NCBI RefSeq assembly: GCF_002024505.1
Contig: NZ_CP019402.1
Coordinates: 3,224,001 to 3,288,000 of the forward strand
Reading direction: 5' to 3'
DNA length: 64,000 nt
Source of the DNA: Plantibacter flavus
Lineage (GTDB): Bacteria; Actinomycetota; Actinomycetes; Actinomycetales; Microbacteriaceae
Shown here: positions 43,511 to 58,619 of the stretch, in pieces
Position numbering within the stretch: the first letter of the stretch is position 1
Layout of the letters: each line of letters opens with the position of its first letter
Translations under genes and position numbers: made by a program
Notes under the pieces: model-generated
Told to the model about the DNA's origin: nothing
The model's database searches: none
What the model saw: only the letters and a program-made list of their open reading frames with translations

Positions 43511-46500
43511 TCACTCCAGACGCGCCCGTCGCGTAGCCACGAAGGCACCTCCGAGGAGGAGCATCGTGGCGCCGAGTCCCCCGAGCCACAGGCCGTCGAA
43601 ACCGGTGCTCGGGAGACCGGGGCGTGACCCCGGTGCTGCGGCGGCCACCGCGGTGACCGTGAAGGCGGTCGCCTCGCGGTCAAGCGGCAGGTCGCCGGTC
43701 ACGGATCCGGAGAGCTCCACCCGGTGGGCACCCAGCTCGATCGACGAGTCGACCGGGAAGGTGAGGGTGGCGTTGCCGGAGGCGTCTGCGACAACGGGCG
43801 TCAGGGCGAACGGCGTCGAGAAGACGGTGGCCGAGACGGTCTCGCCGGGCTCGAAGCCGGTGGCGTAGACCTCCTGGATCACGCCCGTGTCGCGGACGAT
43901 CGTCGAGTACTTGACGGTCGCCTGACGCTCGTCGCCGGCGTCGGTGTCACCATCGGCGTCAGCTGCGGTGTCGGCGTCGGTCGCCGTGTCCGCGTCGGTC
44001 GCCGTGTCCGCGTCTGCCGCAGTGTCGGTGTCGACATCCGCGTTCAGGTCGACATCCACTCCGTCGGACGCTGCATCGGTGTCCGCCGCGGTGTCGGTGT
44101 CGGCGGCAGTGTCCGCGTCAGTGTCGGCAGCAGCATCCACGTCGGCTGCAGCATCAGTGTCCGCAGCAGCGTCGACATCAGCAGCAGCGTCGACATCAGC
44201 TGCGGCATCGGTGTCAGCAGCAGCATCAGTGTCAGCCGCAGCGTCCGTGTCGGCAGCAGCGTCCACGTCCGCAGCGGCATCCACATCCGCAGCAGCATCC
44301 GTGTCAGCAGCGGCATCCGTGTCGGCAGCAACGTCAGTGTCCGCATCAGCGTCCACATCGGCTGCGGCATCAGCGTCAGCAGCAGCATCCACGTCCGCAG
44401 CAGCATCCACGTCGGCAGCAGCATCCGTGTCCGCAGCAGCATCCACGTCGGCAGCAGCATCCGTGTCCGCAGCAGCATCCACGTCGGCAGCAGCATCCGT
44501 GTCCGCAGCAGCATCCACGTCGGCAGCAGCATCCGTGTCCGCAGCAGCATCCACGTCGGCCGCAGCATCCGTGTCCGCAGCAGCATCCGTGTCCGCAGCA
44601 GCATCCACGTCGGCAGCAGCATCCGTGTCCGCAGCAGCATCCACGTCGGCCGCAGCATCCGTGTCCGCAGCAGCATCCACGTCGGCCGCAGCATCCGTGT
44701 CCGCAGCAGCATCCACGTCGGCAGCAGCATCCGTGTCGGCAGCAGCATCCACGTCGGCGGCGGCATCAGTGTCAGCCGCGGCATCCGTGTCGGCCGCGGC
44801 ATCCACATCAGCAGCAGCGTCCACGTCCGCAGCAGCGTCCACGTCCGCAGCAGCGTCGATGTCGGCAGCAGCATCCGCGTCAGCAGCAGCATCCGTTGCA
44901 GCATCGGTGTCGGCAGCAGCGTCAGTGTCGGCAGCAGCGTCCACGTCCACGTCCACGTCGGCCGCGGCGTCGACGTCAGCAGCGGCGTCCACGTCCACCG
45001 CAGCGGCGTCGGTGTCCACGTCGACCGCTCCGTCCTCGATGGTGACCTCGGACTCGGCCGGCGTCTCGGAGACGTCGCCCTCGGCCGTGACGGTCACCGG
45101 GCCAGGCGTGTAGTCGTCCGGGATCGGCAGGTCCACGGTGAAGGAACCGTCGGGGTTCGTCACCACGGTGACGGACGGTGCGCCCGGGATGGACACCGTG
45201 ACGGTCTCCCCACCGGCGAAGCCCGTCCCGTCGACCGTGACCGACTCACCCAGCAGGACCGACGACGGATCGACCGTGATCGCCGTGTCGTACGCGAGGA
45301 TCTCGATGATCGTCGTCGCCGGCTCGTCCGATGCAGCACCGAGTGCCGTGACCGTGACGTCGCCGAGCGCGTAGCCGTCGGGGACCGGCAGGGTCACCGT
45401 GAAGCCGCCGCCGGCGTTCGTCACCTGCGTGACGGCCGGAGCGCCCGGGATGGACACCGTCACCGTCTCGTTGGCCGCGAAACCCGATCCGGTGATGACC
45501 GTCGTGTCGCCGGCGATCAGCGCGTCCGGGGATGCGGTGATGACGGGCGAGAACACGATGGCGGTGACCGTGACGGTCGCGGTGGCCGGAGCCTGCGACA
45601 CCGCTCCCTCCGCCGTGACGACCAGCGGACCGACCGGCGCATTCGCCGGAACGGTGATCCCGACCGAGAACTCACCGGCGCCGTTCGTCGTCGCCGGGAC
45701 AGCAGTGCCGCCCGGGACCGAGACCGTGACGGACTCGTTCGCGGCGAAGCCGGCACCTGTGACGAGCGTCGCTCCGCCCGCCGTGACCGTGCTCGGGTCG
45801 GCGGTGATCGCCGTCTCGTAGGCCTCGACCGTGAGCTCCGCGTCGGCGGGCGTCGCGGAGGTCTCTCCGACCGCGGTCACCGTGACCGGCCCGGCGGGCG
45901 TTCCGGCCGGCACCGGCAGGGTCGCGGTGAAGCCGCCGTCGCCGTCGGCCGTGACCACGACGGGGTCGCCGCCGGGGATCGAGACGCTGATCGATTCGTT
46001 CGGCTGGAAGCCGGTACCCGTGACCGTGGTGGTCTGGCCCGGGTTCACCGTGTCCGGTGTGAGGGTGATCGCCGTGTCGTAGACCGTTGCCTCGACCGTG
46101 ACGGTGGTGGTCGCCTCGGTCGCCGAGACGACGCCGAGTGCGGTGACCGTGACCGGGCCGGTCGCGAAGCCCTGCGGGACGGCGAACGTCGTGGTGATCT
46201 CACCGTCGGCGTTCGAAGTGACCGTCACCGGCGCGAGGCCGGGGAAGGTGACCGTGACGCTCTCGGTCGGAGCGAAGCCGCTCCCCGAGATCTCCGTCGA
46301 GGTCCCGCCGGGGACCGTCGCCGGGTCGGCGGTGATCGTCGGCGCGTAGACCACGTCGACCGTGAGGTTCGTCGTCGCAGGCGTGTCGGACGTCGCCCCG
46401 AGCGCGGTCACGACGACCACGCCCTCGGCGTAGTCGGCCGGCACGGGCAGCGACACCGAGATGGTGCCGGTCGCCGTCGCCGTGGTGGTCACCGGGTCGG

Positions 46501-49500
46501 CACCGGGGATCGAGACCGTGACGTTCTCGTTCGGTGCGAAACCGGTGCCGGTGACGAGGGTGCTGGCACCCGCGACGACGGTGGTCGGGTCGGCCGTGAT
46601 GGCCGTGACGTAGGTCGTGGCCTCGACGGTGAGCGTCGCCGTGGCGGGGGTCGCCGAGACTGCACCGGTGGCGGTGACGGTCACGGGTCCGAGCGGGAAG
46701 TCCGCCGGGAGGTCGACGCTCACGGAGATCTCACCGTTGCCGTCGGCCGTGGTGGGAATCGGCGTCGCGATGCCCGGGACGGTGACGCTCACGGCCTCGT
46801 TCGACGCGAAGCCGTCGCCGGTGACCGTGGTGCTGCCGCCAGGGGCGACCGTCGTCGGGTCGAGGGTGATCGCAGTCTCGTAGGCCTCGACGGTGACCGT
46901 CGCGGTCGCATCCGTCGCGGAGACGGCGCCGGTCGCGGTCACGACGAGCGGTCCGGCTTCCGTGCCCGACGGGATCGGCAGGGCGGCGGTGAAGCCGCCG
47001 TCGCCGTTCGCCGTCACGACGACCGGCGTGCCACCGGGGATGGAGACCGAGACGGACTCGTTCGGTGCGAACCCGGTACCGGTGATCGTCGTCGACGTGC
47101 CGGGGAGCAGCGCGTCCGGGTCGGCGGTGATCGCGGTCTCGTACGGCACCACGGTCACGTCGGCGTCGGCGGGCGTGTTCGACGTGTCACCGGTTGCGGT
47201 GATCGTCAGCGGACCCGCAGGCGTTCCGGCCGGGATCGTCACGGCCTGCGTGAAGTCGCCGTCGCCGTTCGTCGTCACGGTGACGGGGTCGCCGCCCGGG
47301 ATCGTGATGGTGACGGTCTCGTTCGGTGCGAAGCCGGTGCCCGTGACGGTGGTGGTTCCGCCCGGGTTGACCGTCGTCGGATCCACCGTGATCGCCGTGT
47401 CGTACACGACCGCTTCGACGAAGACCGAGGTCTGCGCCGGCGTGAGCGACAGGGCGCCCGTGGCCGTGAACGTCACGGTCGTGGGGACGAAGTCCGCCGG
47501 GAAGGCGACCACCTGGCTGATCTCACCGAGCCCGTTCGCCGTGGTCACGACGTCGTCGAAGCCGGGCGTCGAGATGGTCACCGACTCGTTCGCGACGTAG
47601 CCGGTGCCGGACAGGATCGTCGAGTCACCGGGGTTCAGCGTGGACGGCGTCGCGGTGAGCGTCGTGTCGAACGCCTCGACGGTGATCGTCGCAGTGGCGG
47701 GGGTGTTCGACACGGCTCCGACGGCCGTCACGACGACGGGGCCGGCGGGGGTGCCGGGCAGGATCGGCAGGATGGCGGTGATGTCGCCGTCCGGGCCGGC
47801 CTCCACCACGACGGGTGTGCCGCCGGGGATGGAGACGGAGACGGACTCGCCGGGCAGGAAGCCCGTTCCGGTCACGGTGGTGCTGCCGCCGGGGAGGAGC
47901 GTGTCGGGGTCGGCGGTGATCGCCGTGTCGTAGACCGTGGCCTCGACCGTGACCGTGGTGGTCGCCTCGGTTGCGGAGACGACGCCGAGGGCGGTGACCG
48001 TGACCGGACCGACCACGAAGTTCTGCGGGACGTCGACGGTGGTCGTGATCTCACCGGCTGCGTTCGACGTGACGGTGATCGGGTCGAGGCCCGGGAAGGT
48101 GACCGTGACGCTCTCGCTCGGCGCGAAACCGGTGCCCGAGATCTCGGTGCTGGTGCCGCCGGGGACCGTGGCCGGGTCGGCGGTGATCGTCGGGGTGTAA
48201 ACGACGTCGACCGCGAGGTTCGTGGTGGCCGGCGTCTCGGAGACCTCGCCGAGGGCGGTCACGACGACCGTGCCCTCCGCGTAGTCCGCCGGGACCGGCA
48301 GCGAGACGGAGATGGTGCCGGTCGCCGACGCCTGCGTGGTGACCGCGGGCGCACCGGGGATGGAGACCGTGACGGTCTCGTCGGGCTCGAAGCCGGTACC
48401 GGTGACGAGCGTGCTCTCCCCCGCGACGACGGTCGTCGGGTCGACCGTGATGGCCGTGACGTAGGTGGTCGCCTCGACGGTGAGCGTCGCCGTGGCCGGG
48501 GTGGCCGAGACGGCACCGGTGGCGGTGACCGTGACGTCGCCGAGCGGGAAGTCCGCCGGCAGGGTGACACTGACCGTGATCTCGCCGTCGCCGTTCGCCG
48601 TGGTCGTCACGGGCGTCGCGAGGCCGGGGATGGTGATCTCGACGGACTCGAGCGGGACGAAACCGGAACCGGTGACGACCGTGCTGCCACCGGGGGCGAT
48701 GGTCGCCGGGTCGAGCGCGATGTCGGTGTCGTAGGCCTCGACGGTGATGTCCGTCTCGGCCGGCGTCGCGGAGACCGCGCCGGTGGCGGTGACCGTGAGC
48801 TGGCCGGCGGCCGTACCCGACGGGATCGGCAGGACGGCCGTGAAGCCGCCGTCGCCGTCAGCCGTCACGACGACGGGCGTGCCGCCAGTGAAGGAGACGG
48901 AGACCGACTCGTTCGCGGCGAAGCCCGTGCCCGTGATGGTGGTCGAGTTGCCGGGGAGGAGCGAGGCCGGGTCGGCCGTGATGGCCGTGCCGTACGGCAG
49001 CACCTCGAGGTCGGCGGTCGCCGGGGTTGCGGAGGTCTCGCCGGTCGCGGTGACGACGAGCGTGCCGGCTGGCGTGCCGTCGGGGACGGGCAGGTCGACG
49101 GTGAAGCCGCCGTCGCCGTCCGCATCGACGGTCACCGGGGTGCCGCCCGGGTAGCCGACGGTGACCGTCTCACCGGGCAGGAAGCCGGTGCCGGTCACCG
49201 TCGTGGTGTTCCCAGGGATGAGTGACGTCGGGTCGAGCGTGATGGCGGTGTCGTAGACCGTCGCAGTGACGGTGACGACGGTGGTCGCTTCGGTGGCGGA
49301 CACGGCGCCGAGGGCGGTGACCGTGACGTCGCCGACCGCGAAGTCCTGCGGCACGGCGATGGGGGTGCCGATGGCGCCGAGTGCGGTGGCGGTGACGGTG
49401 ATCGGCTCGAGTCCGGGGAACGTCACGACGACGTCCTCGCCGGGCGCGAAGCCTGCACCGTTGATGATCGTGGTCGTGCCGCCGGCGACCGTGGCCGGGA

Positions 49501-51841
49501 CGGCGACGATCGACGTCTCGTAGACCACGTCGAGGTTGGTGGTGGCCGGGGTGTCGGACGTCTCGCCGAGCGCGGTCACGACGACCTGGCCTGCGGCGTA
49601 GTCGGCGGGGACGTCGAGCTCGACCGAGATCGTGCCGGTTCCGGTGGCCGTGGTGGTGACCGGGTCGACGCCGGGGATCGAGACGGAGACGGTCTCGCCC
49701 GAGGCGAAGCCGGTCCCGGTGATCGTCGTGGTCCCACCGGCGACGACACTGGCCGGGTCGGCGGTGATCGCGGTGACGTACTGGGTCGCCTCGACGGTGA
49801 CCGTCGTGGTCGCCGGGCTGGCCGACGAGGCGCCGGTCGCCGTGACCGTCACGGGGCCGAGCGGGAAGTCCGCCGGGAGCGTGAGACTGGCGGAGATGGT
49901 GCCGGTGCCCGTCGCGGTGGTGACGACCGGGTCGGTGAGGCCGGGGACGGTGATCGACACCGACTCGCCGGGCAGGAACCCCGTGCCGGTGATCGTGGTG
50001 CTGCCCCCGGGGGCGATCGTCGCCGGGTCGGCGGTGATCGCCGTCACGAAGGGGGCGACAACCAGGTCGGTGGTCGCGGGGGTGTCGGAGGTCGCACCGG
50101 TGGCGGTGAACGTCAGGGTCGCCGGGGTGAAGCCGGCGGGGATCGCGACGCTCTGGCTGATCACACCGGCGGCGTCCGACGTCGTGACGACCGGGTCGAG
50201 GCCGGGCGCGGTGATCGTGACCTGCTCGTTCGCCGCGAAGCCGGTGCCGTCGATCACGGTGGACTGGCCGGGATTGACGGTCGCCGGTGTGGCGGTGATC
50301 GCCGTGTCGTACACGACGAGCGTCCCGCGCACGGAGGACGACGCGAGGTTGACCGTCGCGAGCGAGATCGCCGGGACGAGGGAGATCTGCACGGCTCGAA
50401 CGGTCGCCGACCCCGCCCCGAGGTCGCCGGTCGCCGGCTGCACGTTCGCGGTGACGTCGGCGACGAGCCGCACGATGTTCAGGATGGGGCCGACGACGTT
50501 CGCGGCGAGACCGCCGGTGATGCCGTTCAGGGCGGTGTTGAGCGTTCCGACACCGGTGTAGGCCGTGGCGACCGTGTTCTTCACGAGGTTGAGGACGAGG
50601 TTGACCACACCGTCGAGGGTGAGTCCGAGGGTCGCGAGGATCGGGTTCAGCACGTTCGGGAGGAGCCCCGCCGAGGTGAAGGCGGCGGTGCCGTTCTGGA
50701 CGGCGCCGAGGGTCGAGTCGAGCGACAGGGAGATGACCGGGACCTGCGTGACGACGACGTTCGTCGTGACGTTGCCGGTGACCTGGATGCGTGTGCCGTC
50801 GACGGCTGCCTGGACGCCGGCGGACACGGCCGTGACCTGCGCGGTGACGGCGGACGTGATCGCGGCGGCGATCGCGGCGCCGATCGGGCCGGACAGCAGT
50901 GAGGTGTTCGGCGGCAGGTCGTTGAGGTCCGGCAGGTTCGGGTCGTTCGCGAGGAGGGTCGCGAGGTCGACGGTCACCGCACCGGTGAGCAGGTTGACGG
51001 AGACACCGGTCGCCGCGGACTGCGACGCCTGGGTGGTGAGGATGCCGTTGACGACGGTCGCGAGGTTCGGCGGCGTGACCGTGGCCGTCGCAGCAACACG
51101 GAGGACGCCGATGAGGTTCGCGTTCAGCGCCGTGTTGAGCGCCGAGGTGAGCCCGTTGAGCGTGGTCTGTAGCGGCGGGAGGAGGCCCGTCACCTGCGTG
51201 CCGACGTTCTGCACGAGGGGGCTCTGGAAGGTGAGCGTCGCACCGGCGATCTGGTAGTCGGGAACGGCCGTGGTGCCGCCCGTCTGCGAGATCGTGGAGG
51301 CGAGGGCGCCGAGGCTGAGGGAGAGGTCGCTGAGGACACCGCCGGTCGGTGTCCCGACCCGGCCCAGCAGACCGGTCAGGTCGAGTTCGGCGTCCGCCGG
51401 CGGAGCATCGGGTCCACCGATCGAGACGCCACCCTGGTCGGTGACCGCGCCTGAGCCGGCGATCGCGTCGCCGTTGTCGGCGGCGGACCCGTACTGAGCG
51501 ACGGCACCGAGCTCGATGACGCCATTGGCACCGAACAGTTGGAGAGAGCTGCCGAGGTCGACGCCGAGGGTGTTGAGCACCTCGGCCGACAGCGGGTTCG
51601 CGGCGACCGGGTGCACCCCGCTCGGGTTCTCGGCACGGGCGCCGCCGACTGCGGCGAGGGCGTCGAGGTTGATCCCGGCCGCCTGTCCACCGAGGAAGCG
51701 GCCGAAGCCGTCGGAGACATCGGTCGGGGCCGCTGTGGCCGCCGTCGTCGATCCCATGGCGATGACCGTGCCGACCACGGCCATGGCCGCGACCTTCCAC
51801 GCACGGCCTCGGCCGAGGATGCTTCGCTGCTGTTCCCCCAC
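43511..51841 (-). CDS. giant sortase-anchored adhesin (choice-of-anchor G type, 20 Ig-like repeats, Asp/Ala stalk)
   Basis: A 2,776-residue surface protein. The GTG at 51841 has AAAGGG upstream and opens a signal peptide (about 1-45, cut near TAAATAAP). Residues about 46-510 form an N-terminal domain like choice-of-anchor G proteins (DGFGRFLGGQAAGINLDAL). Then 20 tandem Ig-like repeats of about 88 residues follow (about 510-2270), each opening like VYDTAITADPATV and containing TGTGFAPNESV. Next comes a stalk of about 360 residues of DAAADV/DAAADT hexapeptides, one last Ig-like domain, and LPSTG at 2743 with a membrane segment and a basic tail. The order ligand domain, spacer, acidic stalk, anchor matches Gram-positive adhesins such as the Sdr family, though the sequence is unrelated. 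Ligand unknown. Divergent from the LuxR regulator. Confidence 0.88.
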   Translation of the reverse strand: MGEQQRSILGRGRAWKVAAMAVVGTVIAMGSTTAATAAPTDVSDGFGRFLGGQAAGINLDALAAVGGARAENPSGVHPVAANPLSAEVLNTLGVDLGSSLQLFGANGVIELGAVAQYGSAADNGDAIAGSGAVTDQGGVSIGGPDAPPADAELDLTGLLGRVGTPTGGVLSDLSLSLGALASTISQTGGTTAVPDYQIAGATLTFQSPLVQNVGTQVTGLLPPLQTTLNGLTSALNTALNANLIGVLRVAATATVTPPNLATVVNGILTTQASQSAATGVSVNLLTGAVTVDLATLLANDPNLPDLNDLPPNTSLLSGPIGAAIAAAITSAVTAQVTAVSAGVQAAVDGTRIQVTGNVTTNVVVTQVPVISLSLDSTLGAVQNGTAAFTSAGLLPNVLNPILATLGLTLDGVVNLVLNLVKNTVATAYTGVGTLNTALNGITGGLAANVVGPILNIVRLVADVTANVQPATGDLGAGSATVRAVQISLVPAISLATVNLASSSVRGTLVVYDTAITATPATVNPGQSTVIDGTGFAANEQVTITAPGLDPVVTTSDAAGVISQSVAIPAGFTPATLTFTATGATSDTPATTDLVVAPFVTAITADPATIAPGGSTTITGTGFLPGESVSITVPGLTDPVVTTATGTGTISASLTLPADFPLGPVTVTATGASSASPATTTVTVEATQYVTAITADPASVVAGGTTTITGTGFASGETVSVSIPGVDPVTTTATGTGTISVELDVPADYAAGQVVVTALGETSDTPATTNLDVVYETSIVAVPATVAGGTTTIINGAGFAPGEDVVVTFPGLEPITVTATALGAIGTPIAVPQDFAVGDVTVTALGAVSATEATTVVTVTATVYDTAITLDPTSLIPGNTTTVTGTGFLPGETVTVGYPGGTPVTVDADGDGGFTVDLPVPDGTPAGTLVVTATGETSATPATADLEVLPYGTAITADPASLLPGNSTTITGTGFAANESVSVSFTGGTPVVVTADGDGGFTAVLPIPSGTAAGQLTVTATGAVSATPAETDITVEAYDTDIALDPATIAPGGSTVVTGSGFVPLESVEITIPGLATPVTTTANGDGEITVSVTLPADFPLGDVTVTATGAVSATPATATLTVEATTYVTAITVDPTTVVAGESTLVTGTGFEPDETVTVSIPGAPAVTTQASATGTISVSLPVPADYAEGTVVVTALGEVSETPATTNLAVDVVYTPTITADPATVPGGTSTEISGTGFAPSESVTVTFPGLDPITVTSNAAGEITTTVDVPQNFVVGPVTVTALGVVSATEATTTVTVEATVYDTAITADPDTLLPGGSTTVTGTGFLPGESVSVSIPGGTPVVVEAGPDGDITAILPILPGTPAGPVVVTAVGAVSNTPATATITVEAFDTTLTATPSTLNPGDSTILSGTGYVANESVTISTPGFDDVVTTANGLGEISQVVAFPADFVPTTVTFTATGALSLTPAQTSVFVEAVVYDTAITVDPTTVNPGGTTTVTGTGFAPNETVTITIPGGDPVTVTTNGDGDFTQAVTIPAGTPAGPLTITATGDTSNTPADADVTVVPYETAITADPDALLPGTSTTITGTGFAPNESVSVSIPGGTPVVVTANGDGGFTAALPIPSGTEAGPLVVTATGAVSATDATATVTVEAYETAITLDPTTVAPGGSTTVTGDGFASNEAVSVTVPGIATPIPTTADGNGEISVSVDLPADFPLGPVTVTATGAVSATPATATLTVEATTYVTAITADPTTVVAGASTLVTGTGFAPNENVTVSIPGADPVTTTATATGTISVSLPVPADYAEGVVVVTALGATSDTPATTNLTVDVVYAPTITADPATVPGGTSTEISGSGFAPTESVTVTFPGLAPVTVTSNADGEITTTFAVPQGFATGPVTVTALGVVSATEATTTVTVEATVYDTAITLTPDTVNPGQTTTVTGTGFQPNESISVSIPGGDPVVVTADGDGGFTATLPVPAGTPAGPVTVTAVGETSATPADAELTVEAYETAITADPSTVTAGGATLVTGAGFAANESVTVSVPGGTAVPATTNGAGEFSVGITVPANAPVGPLVVTAEGAVSQAPATATVTVTAIVFSPVITASPDALIAGDTTVITGSGFAANETVTVSIPGAPAVTQVTNAGGGFTVTLPVPDGYALGDVTVTALGAASDEPATTIIEILAYDTAITVDPSSVLLGESVTVDGTGFAGGETVTVSIPGAPSVTVVTNPDGSFTVDLPIPDDYTPGPVTVTAEGDVSETPAESEVTIEDGAVDVDTDAAAVDVDAAADVDAAADVDVDVDAAADTDAAADTDAATDAAADADAAADIDAAADVDAAADVDAAADVDAAADTDAAADTDAAADVDAAADTDAAADVDAAADTDAAADVDAAADTDAAADVDAAADTDAAADVDAAADTDAAADTDAAADVDAAADTDAAADVDAAADTDAAADVDAAADTDAAADVDAAADTDAAADVDAAADVDAAADADAAADVDADADTDVAADTDAAADTDAAADVDAAADVDAAADTDAAADTDAAADTDAAADVDAAADVDAAADTDAAADVDAAADTDADTAADTDTAADTDAASDGVDVDLNADVDTDTAADADTATDADTATDADTAADADGDTDAGDERQATVKYSTIVRDTGVIQEVYATGFEPGETVSATVFSTPFALTPVVADASGNATLTFPVDSSIELGAHRVELSGSVTGDLPLDREATAFTVTAVAAAAPGSRPGLPSTGFDGLWLGGLGATMLLLGGAFVATRRARLE
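43935..45030 (-). repeat. Asp/Ala-coding minisatellite (18-bp period)
   Basis: The DNA repeats with an 18-bp period coding DAAADV or DAAADT. From 44401 to 44760 it is almost perfect with a 36-bp double unit (about ten units), on the plus strand GCAGCATCCACGTCGGCA followed by GCAGCATCCGTGTCC. The number of units probably varies by slippage, always keeping frame. Confidence 0.92.
45040..50320 (-). repeat. 20 tandem Ig-like domain coding repeats
   Basis: Twenty repeats of about 264 bp. Some groups recur in the same order (for example the VYAPTITADPATVPGG type after the TYVTAIT type, twice), so the array probably grew by duplication of multi-domain blocks. Confidence 0.85.
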
Positions 51842-52355
51842 GGTGGAACCCTTTCTTCGGTGCACGGGCGAACCCGCGACTGGCGTCGATCCCGGCCAAT
51901 CTATGGGCGGGCTTCCCTGTCCCCCAGAGGAGGGACCCCAACCTCCGTAGTGCCGGATGGAAAACCGGTACTGGCCTCCGCAGTGCGAGGCGGCGCCGCG
52001 GGACGCCGGGTTTCGATCGGTCCCGGGGGGCCTCCGACGCGTCATCAGTGGCGGGGCTCCAGTGCAGTCGGTTCCATCCGTGTCATGTCATCGATGACGG
52101 TTGAGAGATAACCCGCACTGGCCGCAGGTTTACCCCCGACTGGGGTGCGTAGTTTCTACTGAGAACGCTCTCTTAGGGCTGCGGGAGCACTCAGGGATTA
52201 CGGATAATGGGGCATCCGACGGAGTATTCGCAGCGTCCCTAGTGATGCGGATCCCGTCGTCCTGACGGAGCTTGAGGGGGCTGCGATATGGAAGAACCGG
52301 TTGCGACGGTAGTGGAGCGAAAGCCACATCCGAGGTCGGCCGAGCAGGTCATCCC
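51842..52355. other. 514-bp divergent regulatory region between adhesin and LuxR regulator
   Basis: No gene is visible. The region holds an inverted repeat AGTGCCGG/CCGGTACT (about 51950-51971) and three ACTGG-type motifs: AAACCGGTACTGG near 51959, TAACCCGCACTGG near 52109 and TTACCCCCGACTGGGG near 52129. It is less G+C-rich than the flanking genes near 52140-52210, where promoters of one or both genes probably lie. Confidence 0.5.
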
Positions 52356-55244
52356 ATGAACCCGGGTGCGCATCGGTTCAGTGGCGGCGCGCGGTCCGCC
52401 GCATCGCCCACCCGTCGCTCCGGCGAGTTCCGCCAATCCGCCACCCGCGCTCCCGCCCAACCGAGCGGTCGAGCGGCCGCGATCGCCCGGATGACGGCGC
52501 TCATCGCGAACCGGACCAGCACGCTCCTCGTCGGACCACACGGCTACGGCAAGACCTTCACCGCGGACGCGATCGGACGTCGGATGCACGAGGAAGGACG
52601 CCCGGTCATCCACGTGTCGGGTGCGTCACGGGACGCCTCGCACACGCTGAGCGACTGGCGCACGGTACCGAGCGGTGCCGTCTTCATCGTCGACGACGGG
52701 GCGAACCTCCACCCGGCGAGCCTCGCCGACATCATCGAACTCTCGCGGTCGCGTGAGCAGGTCGCCCTGGTGACGCTGGAGCAGGAGCTCGCCGGACTGC
52801 AGGGGCGCGGCGACGAGTCCGCTGATCGGCTCCTCGCCGTCTGGCGGACCGGGTCGCTCACACGGATCGACCTCCCGGCGCTCGACGGGTTCGAAGCCTC
52901 GGCGATGGTGGACGAAGCCGCCGACGACGCGGTCCTCGACGACATGGCCAAGGCCGTCATCGTGCGATTGAGCAACGGCTCTCCGCGACTCGTGCATGAG
53001 CTCACCAAGGACGCGCTCGAGACGGGTGGGGAGTTCTACCTGCCGCGCAGCATCCTCTCGCTCGGGGTCGCGGGGGTCTCACGGCGAGTGCACGACCTCA
53101 CGGAACCTCAGCTCTCCCGGCTCGAGGACGAGGGTCGCTACGCGCTGGTCATGCTGGCGAAGCTCGGCCCGGTCCCCTACTCGCGCGCGATCCGCCTACT
53201 CGGCGAGCACCAGTTGCACGCGCTCCTCCGGCTCGGACTCGCGCGGCACGACGGCTCAGGCCAGGACCGCATCGTCGCCGACGAACTGCACGCGTGGTCG
53301 GCACTCGCGGAGTGGCGCCACAGCGGACGACTGCACCGCCACGACCGCGTCCAGCGGACGCTCATCTCGGACCTGCGTGGCGGTGCCCGTCTCACGCCGA
53401 ACGAGTCCTTCATCCTCGGCCGGTACTGGCTGACGGCCCCGCACACCGAGCTGGACGAGGGGTTCGAGTCCCTCACGATGGCCCGCACCTTCCTCGAGGC
53501 GGCGCACGTCGCGAACGTCTCCGGCCTCGCCGAGGACGGTCGTCTGCTCGCCGAACGCGCGTACACCTGGCGCCCGTCCGTGGCAGCGGCGCTCCAGTGG
53601 TCACGGTCGCTCGCCATGCTGGGCGACGGTGACGGGGCTCAGCGGGTCCTCGAGGTCGATCCCGCGGCCGATTCCGACGAGGACATGCAGGCGGAGGTCA
53701 TGAGTTGGCGGGCGACCCTCGATCGCTGGTCCGAACGCACCTGCGCGCAGGAGCTGACGGAGCAGGAGGAGCACAGCCGCCTGCTGTCCCAGCGCATCCT
53801 GATGGTCGAGACCTGGCGCGACCAGGATCGGCAGGAGCCGACCGAAGGCGATGCCGTCTTCTGGAAGGTCCTGCGCGACACCGACGCCGCGCAGTCCTCG
53901 CGACTCTATGCCGCCGCTGCGCTCGTGACCAGGCTCGGCCTCAGGCTGCCACCGTCCGAGCTGCGGGAGCTGCTCCAGCTGGGTGACGCCGTCTACCGGT
54001 CGGTGCCCTACAGCGCAGCGCGGCCGTTGTCGCACGCCCTGCGCGACGCGAGCGCCATGTACGTCCTGTCGGCCGGCACCATCCGCCTGCTCACCGGACT
54101 CTCCTGGGCCGGCTTCGCGCGCTACATCGACGAGTTCGTCGCTCGTGCCGAGCGCGGGACCGGGCGCCTGGCGACGACGGACCAGTGCATCGTCGGGATC
54201 CTCGGAGCCCAGTTGGCGTTCTTCGACGGCCGCCCGGACCGAACCGTGGCCGACCTCCGGGTCGTCGAACGGCTCCTCGACTCGACCGTTCCGCCCGAGG
54301 TGCACACGCAGACCGCGCTCCTCCTCGTCGGTGCTCTCGCTCAGACCGGCGAGCTCGAGGAGGCGACGGAACGGCGAGCTGCCGAAGACGAACGCCTCAT
54401 CGCCGCCTCCACGGTCCTCTCCTATCTGGCCGACATCGCCGACTTCGGTCTGCTGATGGCAGGCGGTCGCGTCATGGACGCCCGGGATCACCTGCGTCGG
54501 CTCGCGCAGGACATCCGGAAGCCGCTGACCCAGCGGATCTACTCCGCGAGCCTGGCCGCCGCGGCCGGCGCCGACCTGTCCGAGACCCTGTCCTGGGTCG
54601 TGGACGCTCGATCGCAGGAGCTCACGCCCCTGCAGGCGTCGCTCATGCTGCTCCTCGAGGCCGGCGCCGCCGGCGACGCGAGCCGCGCCGAGGAGGCCGC
54701 CTGTTCGCTCGAGGAGGTCGGAGCGCGGCATCGGGCGATCGGGGCCCATCTGCTCGCAGAACGGCTCCACGAGGCCAAGGGGCGACTGCAGCACGCCCGC
54801 CGTTGCGCGGAGCGGGCCGCCGAACTCGTGGGTCCCACGCCAGGCGCCGCTGCGGATGCGGAGGCCCGACGGACCCCGCTCGCGCATCCGTCACCGGTGT
54901 TCTCCACCTACCGGGCGGAGAACACCGAGGAGACGGTGCCGATGGAGCGCACCGTCCCGGTCGAGCCGCACTCGACGCACGCACCCCTGGCCTACCTCTC
55001 CCGCGGACAGACGGACACCGGCCAGGAGGCCGCCGCAGCCGACCTGAGCGCGCTCACCCGGCGGGAGCTGGAGGTCGCCCTGCTCATCGCGCAAGGACTG
55101 AGCAATCAGGAGATCGCGACGCGGCTCTTCCTCAGCGTCCGCACCGTCGAGTCGCACGTGCTCCAAGCACGGACGAAGCTGGGCGCGGGGAGACGGCGCG
55201 ACCTCGGCCGCCTGGTCGCGCAGTCCTCGCAGCGTCAGGCCTGA
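52356..55244 (+). CDS. LuxR-type ATP-dependent transcriptional regulator
   Basis: A 962-residue regulator. The N-terminal ATPase has Walker A at 60-68 (GPHGYGKTF) and Walker B near 110-114 (VFIVDD). A long helical middle part, probably TPR-like, follows, and a C-terminal LuxR HTH lies near 895-945 (LTRRELEVALLIAQGLSNQEIA, TVESHV). This is the large LAL/STAND layout, which usually acts as a signal-gated activator. It sits between the adhesin and the SipW operon, which it may control. The ATG at 52356 is chosen over an upstream in-frame GTG that would lengthen an atypical N-terminus. The inducing signal is unknown. Confidence 0.85.
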   Translation: MNPGAHRFSGGARSAASPTRRSGEFRQSATRAPAQPSGRAAAIARMTALIANRTSTLLVGPHGYGKTFTADAIGRRMHEEGRPVIHVSGASRDASHTLSDWRTVPSGAVFIVDDGANLHPASLADIIELSRSREQVALVTLEQELAGLQGRGDESADRLLAVWRTGSLTRIDLPALDGFEASAMVDEAADDAVLDDMAKAVIVRLSNGSPRLVHELTKDALETGGEFYLPRSILSLGVAGVSRRVHDLTEPQLSRLEDEGRYALVMLAKLGPVPYSRAIRLLGEHQLHALLRLGLARHDGSGQDRIVADELHAWSALAEWRHSGRLHRHDRVQRTLISDLRGGARLTPNESFILGRYWLTAPHTELDEGFESLTMARTFLEAAHVANVSGLAEDGRLLAERAYTWRPSVAAALQWSRSLAMLGDGDGAQRVLEVDPAADSDEDMQAEVMSWRATLDRWSERTCAQELTEQEEHSRLLSQRILMVETWRDQDRQEPTEGDAVFWKVLRDTDAAQSSRLYAAAALVTRLGLRLPPSELRELLQLGDAVYRSVPYSAARPLSHALRDASAMYVLSAGTIRLLTGLSWAGFARYIDEFVARAERGTGRLATTDQCIVGILGAQLAFFDGRPDRTVADLRVVERLLDSTVPPEVHTQTALLLVGALAQTGELEEATERRAAEDERLIAASTVLSYLADIADFGLLMAGGRVMDARDHLRRLAQDIRKPLTQRIYSASLAAAAGADLSETLSWVVDARSQELTPLQASLMLLLEAGAAGDASRAEEAACSLEEVGARHRAIGAHLLAERLHEAKGRLQHARRCAERAAELVGPTPGAAADAEARRTPLAHPSPVFSTYRAENTEETVPMERTVPVEPHSTHAPLAYLSRGQTDTGQEAAAADLSALTRRELEVALLIAQGLSNQEIATRLFLSVRTVESHVLQARTKLGAGRRRDLGRLVAQSSQRQA

Positions 55245-55320: not shown

Positions 55321-55441
55321 TTACAACAGACACCCGGCTGCCTATCGTCCTGAGAGTGTCGCGAGACGCGTGGAGACCGTCTCCGCACGCCCGACACCTG
55401 TGGTGACGTCAGCCGTCACCGACGGACTTCAGGGGGCTTCC

Positions 55442-56086
55442 ATGACCATCGACACCAGCACCGAGGCCCCAGCGGCCACCGGCACCGACGCACCCGTGCG
55501 CGGCCTGCGCAGCAAGCGGGCGAAGGCGATCCTGGCCGGCGGGCTGGTGCTCGGCGTCGGTGCGGCGATCACGCTCGCGGCCTGGAACGATTCCGAGTTC
55601 GCGACCGGGATCTTCGCCGGTGGTGGGTTCGGCATCGAGGGCAGCACGGACGGCACCGCCTTCACCGAACACCCGACCGAGGCGGCGGCCGCCCCGCTCA
55701 CCTTCGCGGTGGAGGCCGACAACCTGGCACCCGAAGAGCCCGTCTACGCCGGGTTCGCCGTCCAGCTGACCGCCGCGTCGACGTACGCCGGCACGGTGGA
55801 CATCACGGCCACGAGCGGAGCCGCGATCGCCTCCTCGCTCAGCTACTCCGTCGTGGAGACCACCACGTTCGGCTGCGACGCCACGAGCTTCGCCGCCGGT
55901 GACCCGCTCGTGACGGACGCCGCGACCACGTCGAGCACAGCCGCGGACATCTTCACGCTCGGTGCCGTCACCACGCCGGTGTTCCTCTGCTTCGAGGTCA
56001 CCCCGGCGGCGAGCCTCCCGCAGTCGTCGCCGAGCGGCACCGTCGTCTGGGAGTTCGCGGCCGAGTCCACCACCCCGCTGCCGTGA
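55442..56086 (+). CDS. SipW-type signal peptide surface protein 1
   Basis: A 214-residue exported protein with the SipW-dependent signal layout: basic RSKRAKAI, a hydrophobic stretch (LAGGLVLGVGAAITLAAW), then NDSEFATGIF. In Bacillus the signal peptidase SipW cuts this type in TasA/TapA, fibre proteins of the biofilm matrix. The mature part is a beta-rich domain with Cys residues near 145 and 180. An AGGGGG stretch lies upstream of the ATG. First gene of a four-gene operon; its stop overlaps the next start as GTGA. Fibre formation is inferred, not shown. Confidence 0.82.
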   Translation: MTIDTSTEAPAATGTDAPVRGLRSKRAKAILAGGLVLGVGAAITLAAWNDSEFATGIFAGGGFGIEGSTDGTAFTEHPTEAAAAPLTFAVEADNLAPEEPVYAGFAVQLTAASTYAGTVDITATSGAAIASSLSYSVVETTTFGCDATSFAAGDPLVTDAATTSSTAADIFTLGAVTTPVFLCFEVTPAASLPQSSPSGTVVWEFAAESTTPLP

Positions 56087-56754
56087 CCCGCGGCGGGACG
56101 GCGATCATGGGACGGCACACCCCGGCGGCAGGCAGACACCACCGCACCGACGAACGACGGAGCACATCGCGTTACACGAAGGCCAGGGCGGCCCTCGCGG
56201 CAGCGCTCGTGCTGGGCGTCGGGACCTCGCTCACCCTCGCGGCCTGGAGCGACGACGAGTTCGGGACGGCGACCTTCGCGGCCAGCACCTTCGCCGTGGA
56301 GTCGCAGACCTCGTCGTCGACCTGGGCGGCTCACGAGGCGGCGAACCCCGCCACGCTGGTCTTCAACGCGACCGCCATGTCGCCGGGGTTGTCGCAGTTC
56401 GCCTTCATCGACATCCGCACGACCGCCGCGACGAACATCGGTGGGACGGCGGCGCTGTCCGCGGTCTCGGCGGCGACGGGCACCCTCCTGCCGCAGCTCG
56501 AGTACCGCGTGGTCACGACGGCGGCGGGCACGGCCTGCAACGCCGCCGCGTTCACCTCGGCGACCGTCCCCGCCTACACCGCGTCGTTGTCGACGGGCAC
56601 GACGCCGCCGACGGCGACCGGAGCACTCACGGCGGCCGGCGGTTCGACGGTGCGCTTCTGCTTCGACGTGCGGGTGAAGGCGGGCACGGCCTCCAGCTTC
56701 CAGGGTGGAACGGCGTCGGCGACGTGGCAGTTCACCAGTACCTCCAGTTCCTGA
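56083..56754 (+). CDS. SipW-type signal peptide surface protein 2
   Basis: A 223-residue paralogue in layout: SRYTKARAALAAALVLGVG, a hydrophobic segment and LAAWSDDEFGTATF, then a beta-rich mature domain with LEYRVVTTAAGTACNAA and FCFDVRVKAG. The GTG start overlaps the preceding stop (GTGA), which supports coupling; an ATG at 56107 is the alternative. The mature region shares the two-Cys pattern of the first protein, so the two could be a major and a minor fibre subunit, an inference. Confidence 0.8.
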   Translation: MTRGGTAIMGRHTPAAGRHHRTDERRSTSRYTKARAALAAALVLGVGTSLTLAAWSDDEFGTATFAASTFAVESQTSSSTWAAHEAANPATLVFNATAMSPGLSQFAFIDIRTTAATNIGGTAALSAVSAATGTLLPQLEYRVVTTAAGTACNAAAFTSATVPAYTASLSTGTTPPTATGALTAAGGSTVRFCFDVRVKAGTASSFQGGTASATWQFTSTSSS

Positions 56755-56764
56755 TCGGAGCACC

Positions 56765-58117
56765 GTGACCCGTCCCTCCACGGAAGCGATCGACGCCACC
56801 GAGCGGCAGCAGCCCCGCCGCTCGGTGGCGTCGATCGTCGGAGACACCCTGCTCAACCTCGCCGCCGTCGGCGGGGTGGTCTGCATCGTGCTCGTCATCC
56901 TCGCGACCTGCTTCAACGTGACCCTCATCATGTTCAAAACCGGTTCCATGAGCCCGACGATCCCCACCGGCTCACTCGCGCTCGTCCGCGAGATCCCGGC
57001 ATCCGACATCGCGGTCGGCGACGTCGTGACAGTCGACCGCGCCGGCCAGCTGCCCGTCACCCACCGCGTCACCTCGGTGAGCGGCGGCGTCGACACCGCA
57101 GGACCACAACGCACGATCACCATGCAGGGCGATGCGAACCGGTCGGAGGACCCCGAGCCGTACACGGTCTCGACGGTCCGCCTCGTGCTCGCCTCGGTGC
57201 CCGGGCTCGCGTACCTCGTCGTGTGGTTGTCCAACCCGTGGGTCCTCGGCGGACTGACGCTCAGCTGTTCGGCCCTCGTCATGTGGGCGTTCTGGCCACG
57301 ATCGGATCGCAAGCGCCCGCCGGGTGGTGACGGAGGAGTGGGCGGCGGCGGTCGTCCTGCTCCGCGGCGCCGCTCGGCCGCTGCCGGTGCCGTCGCCGAC
57401 GGAGCCGGACCACGACCGGCTCGCCACGCCGCGCTCCGCTGCTCACCGGTCGCCCTGCTCCTCGGAGCCGGCCTCGCGATCGGCGGCGCCGCTCCTGCCC
57501 ACGCCGAGCCGACGGTGGACGTCATCGCCGGCGAGGCGGTCGTGCTCACCTCGATCGGCGACCCGTCGGCCATGCGGTCCCTCACCCCGGGTCGGTCGAC
57601 GCCCTGGGAGGTGGGCATCACGACCAAGCCGGAGGCGACACCGGGCTCCATCGACGTGACCATGGTCGGCTCGGGCTCGACCGAGCTCGGGCTCGTCATG
57701 GCGGTCGACGCCTGTTCCGTCCGCTGGACCGCAGCCGGCTGCGTCGGCACCGTCACCCACCTGTTCGACGAGATGGCGGTGCCCGTCGACGGTGTCGAGC
57801 GCGCGGTCCTGTCGATGAGGAGCACCGAGGCGTGGTGGCTGAAGTTCGACGTCCGGATGCCGTCCGGTGCAGCGGTGGCGAACGCCTCGGTCGCCCTCAC
57901 GGTCACGGCCGAGGGCATCGGTGACGACGTCTCGGTCTCGCCCGGCCCGATCACCACGCTCCCCCGCACCGGCGCGAGCATCGAGTTCGCGGTCTGGGCG
58001 GCTGCGGGAGCGATCCTGATCGGTCTCGTCGGCGCGTGGTTCGGCGCGCTGCGACAGCATTCGCGTTCGGCGAAGCGTACGACGATCCTGCGGGCCGATG
58101 ATGCGACGGCGGGGTGA
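56765..58117 (+). CDS. SipW-like signal peptidase I fused to an LPxTG-anchored extracellular domain
   Basis: A 450-residue protein in two parts. Residues 1-195 are a signal peptidase of the SipW/ER type: membrane helix about 28-50, catalytic Ser61 in GSMSPT, His100-Arg101 (VTHRV) in place of the usual Lys, GDANRSEDP, and a second membrane helix about 155-180. After a Gly/Pro/Arg linker (about 188-225) comes a signal-peptide-like segment ending AAPAHA, a domain of about 150 residues with two Cys, and LPRTG near 399 with a hydrophobic segment. Such proteins are normally separate genes, so this is an unusual fusion in one open frame. GGAG precedes the GTG at 56765. It probably processes the neighbouring SipW-type proteins. 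Confidence 0.85.
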   Translation: MTRPSTEAIDATERQQPRRSVASIVGDTLLNLAAVGGVVCIVLVILATCFNVTLIMFKTGSMSPTIPTGSLALVREIPASDIAVGDVVTVDRAGQLPVTHRVTSVSGGVDTAGPQRTITMQGDANRSEDPEPYTVSTVRLVLASVPGLAYLVVWLSNPWVLGGLTLSCSALVMWAFWPRSDRKRPPGGDGGVGGGGRPAPRRRSAAAGAVADGAGPRPARHAALRCSPVALLLGAGLAIGGAAPAHAEPTVDVIAGEAVVLTSIGDPSAMRSLTPGRSTPWEVGITTKPEATPGSIDVTMVGSGSTELGLVMAVDACSVRWTAAGCVGTVTHLFDEMAVPVDGVERAVLSMRSTEAWWLKFDVRMPSGAAVANASVALTVTAEGIGDDVSVSPGPITTLPRTGASIEFAVWAAAGAILIGLVGAWFGALRQHSRSAKRTTILRADDATAG

Positions 58118-58619
58118 TGGTGGCAGCGGTGTCCTCGGATGGCACCGCCGGATCGCCGCGGCGACCATCGCCGTCGCGATGACGGTGCTGCTCACGCATC
58201 CTGCCCCAGCGCCGGTCGATGCGGCCTGGGCAGATCCCGAGTTCGGGACGGGTAGTTTCACCGCGGCCACCGTGCCGTCTCCGACGTTCTCCAGCTGCAC
58301 CTTCAATCCGAACGCCGTCGGACTCCTCTCCTCGTACACCATCGTGTACACGATCCCAGCCGGTTACACGATCAACTACGCCTATTCAGCGAACGCCTCG
58401 TTCACTCCCAACACGGTCATCTCCCCGACGTCCACGAGCGGCACGACGACCGTGACCTCGACGTTCAGCCTGGGGCTCCTCGGGGGTCTCCTCGGCTCGA
58501 ACGTCTACATCGGCGCGCGGCTCACCCTGCCGTCGACGACCTGGTCTTCGCCCTACCGGGTTGTGAGCGGCACATCGAACGCTCTCGGAACGAACGGCGC
58601 CTGCGCGGTCATCCCGTAG
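58098..58619 (+). CDS. SipW-type signal peptide surface protein 3
   Basis: A 173-residue protein with a basic start, a hydrophobic segment (about 18-40) and the cleavage region AAWADPEFGTGSFTA, close to those of the other two substrates. The mature part is Ser/Thr-rich with two Cys (near 65 and 168) that could form a disulphide. Its first 20 bases overlap the signal peptidase gene, so it is the last gene of the operon. ATG at 58098 or 58101. No known domain is recognised in the mature part. Confidence 0.75.
   Translation: MMRRRGDGGSGVLGWHRRIAAATIAVAMTVLLTHPAPAPVDAAWADPEFGTGSFTAATVPSPTFSSCTFNPNAVGLLSSYTIVYTIPAGYTINYAYSANASFTPNTVISPTSTSGTTTVTSTFSLGLLGGLLGSNVYIGARLTLPSTTWSSPYRVVSGTSNALGTNGACAVIP

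What the first reader, a model, noticed from the sequence alone, without database searches (positions are those of the whole stretch)
56765..58117. SipW-like signal peptidase fused in frame to an LPxTG-anchored domain
The Ser61/His100 signal peptidase and a second secreted module with its own signal-like segment (ending AAPAHA) and LPRTG anchor are in one uninterrupted frame. These are normally separate genes. A fusion would hold the peptidase close to an exported, wall-anchored domain, possibly as a tether or a nucleator for the fibre proteins it processes. Alternatively a small deletion joined two genes, or the linker hides an internal start.
Basis: partly seen in the sequence, partly recalled or inferred. 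Interest (0 to 1): 0.7.

Follow-up and report, generated by a model that had tools for sequence, protein, structure and literature searches.

The report
Signal peptidase fused to surface protein
In this plant-associated bacterium and many of its relatives, an enzyme that trims exported fibre-like proteins is made in one piece with a protein predicted to be fixed to the cell wall; other relatives make the same two as separate neighbouring genes, so the joint form is most likely one precursor that is cut in two after it crosses the membrane.

Summary
GTG56765..TGA58117 is one open frame of 450 aa: an ER/SipW-type signal peptidase (Ser61, His100), a basic linker, a signal-peptide-like segment ending AHA|EP, a beta-sandwich domain, LPRTG, a membrane segment and a basic tail. 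It is not a sequencing error or private deletion: all 7 Plantibacter genomes searched have it, as do 29 of 299 sampled Microbacteriaceae genomes, while 25 others carry the two parts as separate neighbouring genes. The linker evolves as coding DNA, and 39 of 60 fused relatives have no ATG/GTG/TTG in it, so a hidden internal start is unlikely. The locus is a conserved export module: two proteins with SipW-type signals, the peptidase, the C domain (fused, separate or absent), and a third such protein. The first exported protein's model matches the TasA fibre best. Best reading: a TasA-like fibre operon whose peptidase and wall-anchored partner are made as one precursor, probably separated at the internal signal peptide. 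That signal lacks the aromatic P2' residue of the cargo sites, so housekeeping signal peptidase is a likelier cutter than self-cleavage. Cleavage, anchoring and fibres are inferred, not shown.

The parts
56765..57304 (+). SipW/ER-type signal peptidase part (residues 1-180); Ser61 at 56945-56947, His100 at 57062-57064
   Evidence: TIGR02228 54.3 bits, cut-off 51.85; catalytic columns invariant in 43 aligned fused proteins; codons checked
57305..57442 (+). Linker, 46 aa, 10 K/R against 3 D/E, ending PRPARHAALRC; predicted cytoplasmic
   Evidence: third-position excess and no frame-breaking indel in 7 Plantibacter sequences
57443..57505 (+). Internal signal-peptide-like segment SPVALLLGAGLAIGGAAPAHA; predicted cut after AHA
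   Evidence: 58 of 60 fused proteins have AxA after this segment against 42.9 expected on shuffling, maximum 52 in 300 shuffles; hydrophobicity near that of separate-gene signals
57506..57958 (+). Exported beta-sandwich domain; W281, C317 and C326 invariant, W321 nearly so, in the fused alignment
   Evidence: AlphaFold2 pLDDT 86.2, pTM 0.79; no convincing Pfam or NCBIfam domain match
57959..57973 (+). LPRTG sorting motif
   Evidence: L[PA]xTG in 47 of 60 fused proteins
57974..58117 (+). Membrane segment, basic tail and stop codon of the sorting signal
55370..56086 (+). Cargo A: exported protein with SipW-dependent signal, TasA-like fold predicted (start codon uncertain)
   Evidence: TIGR04088 25 bits, cut-off 19; Foldseek best hit TasA fibre 8aur, E 5.1e-4
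56083..56754 (+). Cargo B: exported protein with SipW-dependent signal; its GTG start overlaps cargo A's stop by 4 bases
   Evidence: TIGR04088 19.5 bits, cut-off 19; overlap from the ORF list
58098..58619 (+). Cargo C: small protein with VDA|AW signal; its start overlaps the fusion's stop by 20 bases
   Evidence: own cargo profile finds a gene at the matching place in most relatives; no NCBIfam hit

Best explanation
The locus is a TasA-like fibre-export operon of Micrococcales-type actinobacteria. The SipW-type peptidase trims the exported subunits, whose signals end in xxA|AW. Its gene is joined in frame to the gene of a wall-anchored beta-sandwich partner that in many relatives is the next gene. 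The product is one membrane precursor: N-terminus in, catalytic domain out, basic linker in, internal signal peptide leading the C domain out, LPRTG membrane tail. The internal signal peptide is most likely cut after AHA, probably by the housekeeping signal peptidase I, which frees the C domain for sortase; wall-fixed, it would root or start the fibre as TapA is thought to do in Bacillus. Shown by sequence: one frame, no conserved internal start, the conserved module, signal-peptide and LPxTG anatomy, repeated fused/separate changes. Inferred: topology, cleavage, who cleaves, anchoring, fibre formation and the anchoring role.
For: One open frame in 7 of 7 Plantibacter genomes. Linker constrained as coding DNA. 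No ATG/GTG/TTG in 39 of 60 and no ATG in 56 of 60 fused linkers. In 299 Microbacteriaceae genomes, 104 SipW-like matches: 31 fused, 25 with a separate C gene just downstream, 48 without; 56 of 62 C-domain matches (E below 1e-8) lie next to a SipW match. Order sample of 297 genomes: 48 matches, 22 fused, 11 separate, 7 with the C gene upstream, 8 none. Cargo A, cargo B and cargo C all found around the peptidase in 75 of 89 loci (counted). AxA 58 of 60 against 42.9 expected. Internal segment hydrophobicity median 1.85, near separate-gene signals (1.99), below SipW TM1 (2.76). Holding all fused rows in one clade rejected, p 2.75e-8, as expected if the forms are exchangeable. Three sortase matches and one strong signal peptidase I match in the genome. 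Cargo A model: TasA fibre is the only PDB match at E <= 0.001. TapA as proposed TasA nucleator/anchor: PMC9674648, passages.
Against: No experiment shows cleavage, anchoring or fibres. AxA is frequent by chance in alanine-rich sequence (43 of 60 expected). The peptidase's own second span is as weakly hydrophobic (median 1.76) as the internal segment, so low hydrophobicity does not exclude a lasting span. 15 of 60 fused linkers have net negative charge and 2 none. 13 of 60 lack a strict L[PA]xTG in the region searched. No relation of C to TapA was tested; the C model matches many beta-sandwich proteins about equally well, toxin domains among them. The peptidase falls far below the Bacillus SipW model's cut-off (33.3 against 190 bits).
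Confidence: 0.52

Rival explanations
1. Permanent tether: the internal segment is not cut but stays as a membrane span, so the peptidase remains joined to a wall-anchored domain and is held where fibres are made.
For: The joint frame is common over the family and order samples; the C domain's pN/pS in the genus (0.26) is like the peptidase's (0.25); the internal segment is as hydrophobic as the peptidase's second span (1.85 against 1.76).
Against: AxA after the segment beyond shuffled expectation; relatives do without the join and the forms interchange.
Confidence: 0.27
2. Self-cleaving precursor: the peptidase part itself cuts the internal signal peptide, in cis or between copies.
For: Geometry (inferred): Ser61 and the AHA site would both lie at the outer face. 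In one record ([Zimmermannella] faecalis, L016; L109 appears to be the same record) the third SipW-type cargo is in the same frame too.
Against: 190 of 235 distinct cargo signals have xxA|[AG][WFY], against 4 of 73 fused C halves with any such pattern; the genome has a separate strong signal peptidase I match.
Confidence: 0.15
3. Two products from one stretch: the C half is also started inside the linker or in the last peptidase codons.
For: GTG57338 in the window; an ATG in the linker of 4 of 60 fused proteins (L017, L024, L042, L112); an ATG in the last membrane segment in 5 of 7 distinct Plantibacter sequences.
Against: No start codon in the linker of 39 of 60 fused proteins; GTG57338 abuts GGAGGA without a spacer and is absent in the other Plantibacter sequences.
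Confidence: 0.05
4. Artefact: sequencing error or a private deletion joined two genes in this strain.
For: Relatives with separate genes exist; in Arthrobacter one extra base just before the ATGA separates a fused from separate forms, besides triplet changes.
Against: 7 of 7 Plantibacter genomes fused; 22 of 48 SipW matches fused in the order sample.
Confidence: 0.01

Closest known systems
Bacillus subtilis tapA-sipW-tasA operon
   Same: An ER-type signal peptidase beside exported proteins with SipW-dependent signals; the cargo A model matches the TasA fibre best; C could act like TapA, thought to anchor and nucleate TasA (PMC9674648, passages).
   Different: The partner is LPxTG-type and fused to the peptidase; order differs; no sequence match of the cargo A profile in the PDB; TapA not compared.
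TIGR02228 signal peptidase I (ER/archaeal type)
   Same: Score above cut-off, Ser/His pair, GDAN stretch.
   Different: Carries a C-terminal internal signal peptide, beta-sandwich and sorting signal; the model (158 positions) matches only residues 38-155.
LPxTG adhesins and basal pilins (FnBPA, SdrG, EbpB)
   Different: Identity 8-12%; Z in or just above the range of a common arrangement, and unrelated beta-sandwiches such as toxin domains score 7.7-8.2 in the same list; one small domain, made with a peptidase.
Precursors cut at an internal signal peptide (cytochrome b/c1 FbcH of Bradyrhizobium, viral envelope polyproteins; FbcH is recalled, the search found no paper)
   Same: Two membrane or exported proteins in one chain with an internal signal peptide between them.
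   Different: Here one of the two is itself a signal peptidase and the other a predicted sortase substrate.

Membership tests
ER/archaeal-type signal peptidase I (TIGR02228) | Model score above curated cut-off | tested here: met
   54.3 against 51.85 bits
ER/archaeal-type signal peptidase I (TIGR02228) | Ser/His catalytic pair (role recalled) | tested here: met
   S61 and H100 invariant in 43 aligned fused proteins; activity not tested
Bacillus SipW equivalog (NF046067) | Score above curated cut-off | tested here: not met
   33.3 against 190 bits
SipW-dependent export module | Neighbours with SipW-dependent signal (TIGR04088) | tested here: met
   Cargo A and B above cut-off; 24 of 24 cargo A proteins given match at E <= 0.01 (the window's and 23 of the 30 listed). 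Cargo C has no match
TasA-type fibre operon | Exported subunit with TasA fold | tested here: met
TasA-type fibre operon | Sequence homology of the subunit to TasA | tested here: inconclusive
   Profile A3 finds no PDB sequence at E <= 1; TasA not compared directly
TasA-type fibre operon | Forms fibres | not testable with these tools
   Needs microscopy
LPxTG wall-anchored protein | LPxTG, membrane segment, basic tail | tested here: met
   LPRTG and following segment
LPxTG wall-anchored protein | Curated anchor model (TIGR01167, PF00746) | tested here: inconclusive
   No match of the window's full protein; 4 of 66 and 1 of 66 aligned C regions match weakly, and those regions were cut short of the tail's end
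LPxTG wall-anchored protein | Sortase in the genome | tested here: met
   3 matches above the PF04203 cut-off
TapA | Sequence or structure relation | not tested
   TapA was not compared; likeness is of proposed role only

The most novel reading that the evidence does not exclude
A bacterial 'protease plus anchor' precursor: a signal peptidase made in one chain with the wall anchor of the fibre it processes, released from it by its own active site, so that each fibre base comes with one peptidase at the same membrane spot; in one species the third exported subunit has joined the same chain.
Probability: 0.15. Interest if true: 0.75.

Novelty: new variant of a known kind. Interest (0 to 1): 0.5.

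Why it matters
It points to a TasA-like fibre system with a sortase-type anchor as a conserved module in a large group of soil and plant actinobacteria, and gives a natural series (C domain absent, separate with ATGA overlap, fused, fused with a further cargo) in which to test whether a signal peptidase precursor is cut in cis. The listings (titles and starts of abstracts) showed no paper on this fusion, and 'SipW' with 'Microbacteriaceae' gave 0 papers; most subscription papers are not in that library.

Tried and rejected
Sequencing error or private deletion: rejected for the genus. Internal start: not conserved. My label 'split' was wrong for several loci because profile hits overlapped; corrected. 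Known domain for the C half: no convincing Pfam or NCBIfam match, only weak sorting-tail and chance matches; in the PDB by sequence one nanobody at E 0.49. The LuxR-type gene upstream (52272-55244) was tested as part of the module: homologues beside 7 of 71 loci with 4 kb upstream, 4 Plantibacter on the same strand and 3 Agreia on the opposite strand, so it is not part of the conserved module. Origin of the fusion: on the peptidase tree (82 rows) the fused label needs 10 changes, or 6 when loci without C are not counted, and 4 on the joined-domain tree (65 rows); direction cannot be read from these counts. C domain beyond the order: in the 396-genome phylum sample the 4 hits are all in the window's family, while a separate C gene was found in one Nakamurella (L062). 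Passages of PMC10924467 gave nothing of use. Fold lists show middling scores; absence of a family from them is no evidence.

Full report
What is there. The stretch 56765-58117 is a single open frame of 450 aa. Residues 1-180 are an ER/archaeal-type signal peptidase (TIGR02228, 54.3 bits, cut-off 51.85; the Bacillus SipW equivalog is not reached, 33.3 against 190 bits). S61 and H100 are invariant in 43 aligned fused proteins. A 46-residue linker with 10 K/R and 3 D/E follows, then SPVALLLGAGLAIGGAAPAHA, a domain of about 150 residues, LPRTG, a membrane segment and a basic tail. The window lies in a Plantibacter-like genome: the nearest named relatives are Plantibacter strains, and all 7 genomes of the genus searched, the window's own included, carry the fusion.

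It is translated through. Across seven distinct Plantibacter sequences, summed over pairs, the linker has pN/pS 0.45 (peptidase 0.25, C domain 0.26) and differences at codon positions 1/2/3 of 160/133/369. Linker lengths take four values (33, 40, 42 and 44 residues between fixed flanks), so its indels have all kept the frame, and the stretch RPARHAALR before the hydrophobic segment does not vary. Only the window has an in-frame GTG in the linker (57338); the other six have no ATG, GTG or TTG there. Of 60 distinct fused proteins, 39 have no such codon in the linker and 56 have no ATG (one further row was dropped because the end motif was not found).

How common it is. Among 89 loci gathered with this protein as query (84 after removing 5 duplicates), 45 are fused, 22 have a separate C gene and 17 none, two of the 17 being weak paralogues from the genus search; that set is biased by the query. 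In 16 of the 22 separate pairs an ATG overlaps the peptidase's stop as ATGA, and in one more a GTG does. In 299 Microbacteriaceae genomes drawn by the tool there are 104 SipW-like matches at E <= 1e-15 in 81 genomes: 31 fused (29 genomes; two of the 31 are equal copies on two contigs of one assembly), 25 with a separate C gene within 1.5 kb downstream (25 genomes), 48 without. Of 62 C-domain matches with E below 1e-8, 56 lie next to a SipW match. I fetched the six others: two have a weaker SipW-like hit before the C gene in another frame (L098, L099), one a partial SipW hit in the C gene's own frame near a contig end (L096), one a weak SipW-like hit directly after the C gene (L100), and two none (L095, L097). 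In 297 genomes of the order there are 48 matches at E <= 1e-30: 22 fused, 11 separate, 7 with the C gene upstream, 8 without. In three fetched loci of the upstream type the order is cargo, C, cargo, sipW, with one more cargo at the front in one of them (L141-L143). In 396 genomes of the phylum the C domain appears in 4, all of the window's family.

Fused and separate forms have changed into each other. On a peptidase tree of 82 rows the fused label needs 10 changes (2 forced by starred branches), 6 if loci without C are not counted. On a joined tree of 65 rows it needs 4 (3 forced), and one clade of all fused rows is rejected, p 2.75e-8. Both are quick trees with long branches. In Arthrobacter the fused L042 differs from the separate L038 and L049 by one extra base just before the ATGA, besides triplet changes; a sequencing error in that one record is not excluded. 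In [Zimmermannella] faecalis (L016; L109 appears to be the same record) peptidase, C domain and the third cargo are in one frame of 596 codons. A second, weak case of a SipW-like and a cargo-like hit in one frame is L027:2013-3254 (cargo E 0.0025).

The neighbourhood. A profile built from the window's two upstream cargo signals finds, at nearly fixed distances, two cargo genes before the peptidase and one after it in 46 of 50 fused, 18 of 22 separate and 11 of 17 C-less loci (counted; some misses are ends of the DNA held). All 50, all 22 and 16 of 17 have at least one such gene within 3 kb on the same strand. Where C is absent the third cargo lies 497-665 bases after the start of the peptidase match in 14 of 17 loci, against 1133-1378 in fused ones that have it, so C is an optional module set between them. 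All 24 cargo A proteins given match TIGR04088. 190 of 235 distinct cargo signals have xxA|[AG][WFY], 178 of them AW. This agrees with the TasA signal, which has Phe at P2' and is poorly cut by LepB but served by SipW (PMC10269814, outline and abstract).

The internal signal. 58 of 60 fused proteins have AxA after the hydrophobic segment; shuffling gives 42.9 on average and at most 52 of 60 in 300 shuffles. The segment's hydrophobicity (median 1.85, n 73) is close to that of the signals of separate C genes (1.99, n 48) and below the peptidase's first span (2.76) and the C-terminal sorting span (2.11); but the peptidase's second-span region is as low (1.76), so this measure alone does not tell a cut signal from a lasting span. 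Only 4 of 73 fused C halves show any [AVSTGI]xA followed by x[WFY], against 9 of 48 separate ones. So the segment looks like an ordinary signal peptide. Its most likely cutter is the one strong signal peptidase I match in the genome (its active site was not examined), with the SipW-like part itself second. The genome has three sortase matches.

Reading. The module works like the Bacillus tapA-sipW-tasA operon: a dedicated peptidase, TasA-like exported subunits and a surface partner. TapA is described as thought to anchor and nucleate TasA (PMC9674648, passages). Whether the C domain is TapA's counterpart is a guess from position, LPxTG and fold. The fusion is best seen as a precursor that yields the same two proteins as the ATGA-coupled pair, in a fixed ratio. 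A permanent tether and self-cleavage remain open. No step after translation has been shown.

Literature. Searches listed no paper on this fusion by title or start of abstract; 'SipW' with 'Microbacteriaceae' gave 0 papers. The comparison with the cytochrome b/c1 precursor FbcH is recalled; one search found no paper.

Noticed in passing
43511-52045, - strand: 2844-aa predicted surface protein with repeated Ig-like PGS domains (NF058592), a long Asp-Ala-rich repeat region and an LPSTG tail, next to the fibre module.
   Followed up: no
52272-55244, + strand: 990-aa LuxR-type regulator with an N-terminal ATPase-like region directly upstream of cargo A; homologues on the same strand in 4 Plantibacter loci and on the opposite strand in 3 Agreia loci, of 71 loci with enough upstream DNA.
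   Followed up: partly
L002 (own genome, C1:3167697-3168254): A second SipW-like peptidase about 56 kb before the window, 39% identical, without a C domain or a SipW-type cargo within the 3.6 kb held.
   Followed up: partly
L016:4897-6684 (L109): Peptidase, C domain and third cargo in one open frame in [Zimmermannella] faecalis; the only clear case, with one weak further case at L027:2013-3254.
   Followed up: partly
L129, L130, L135, L136, L138: A more distant set with a separate C-like gene followed by a long open frame carrying a SipW-type signal; C-like proteins of L129, L135, L136 and L138 show SipW-type aromatic sites themselves.
   Followed up: no
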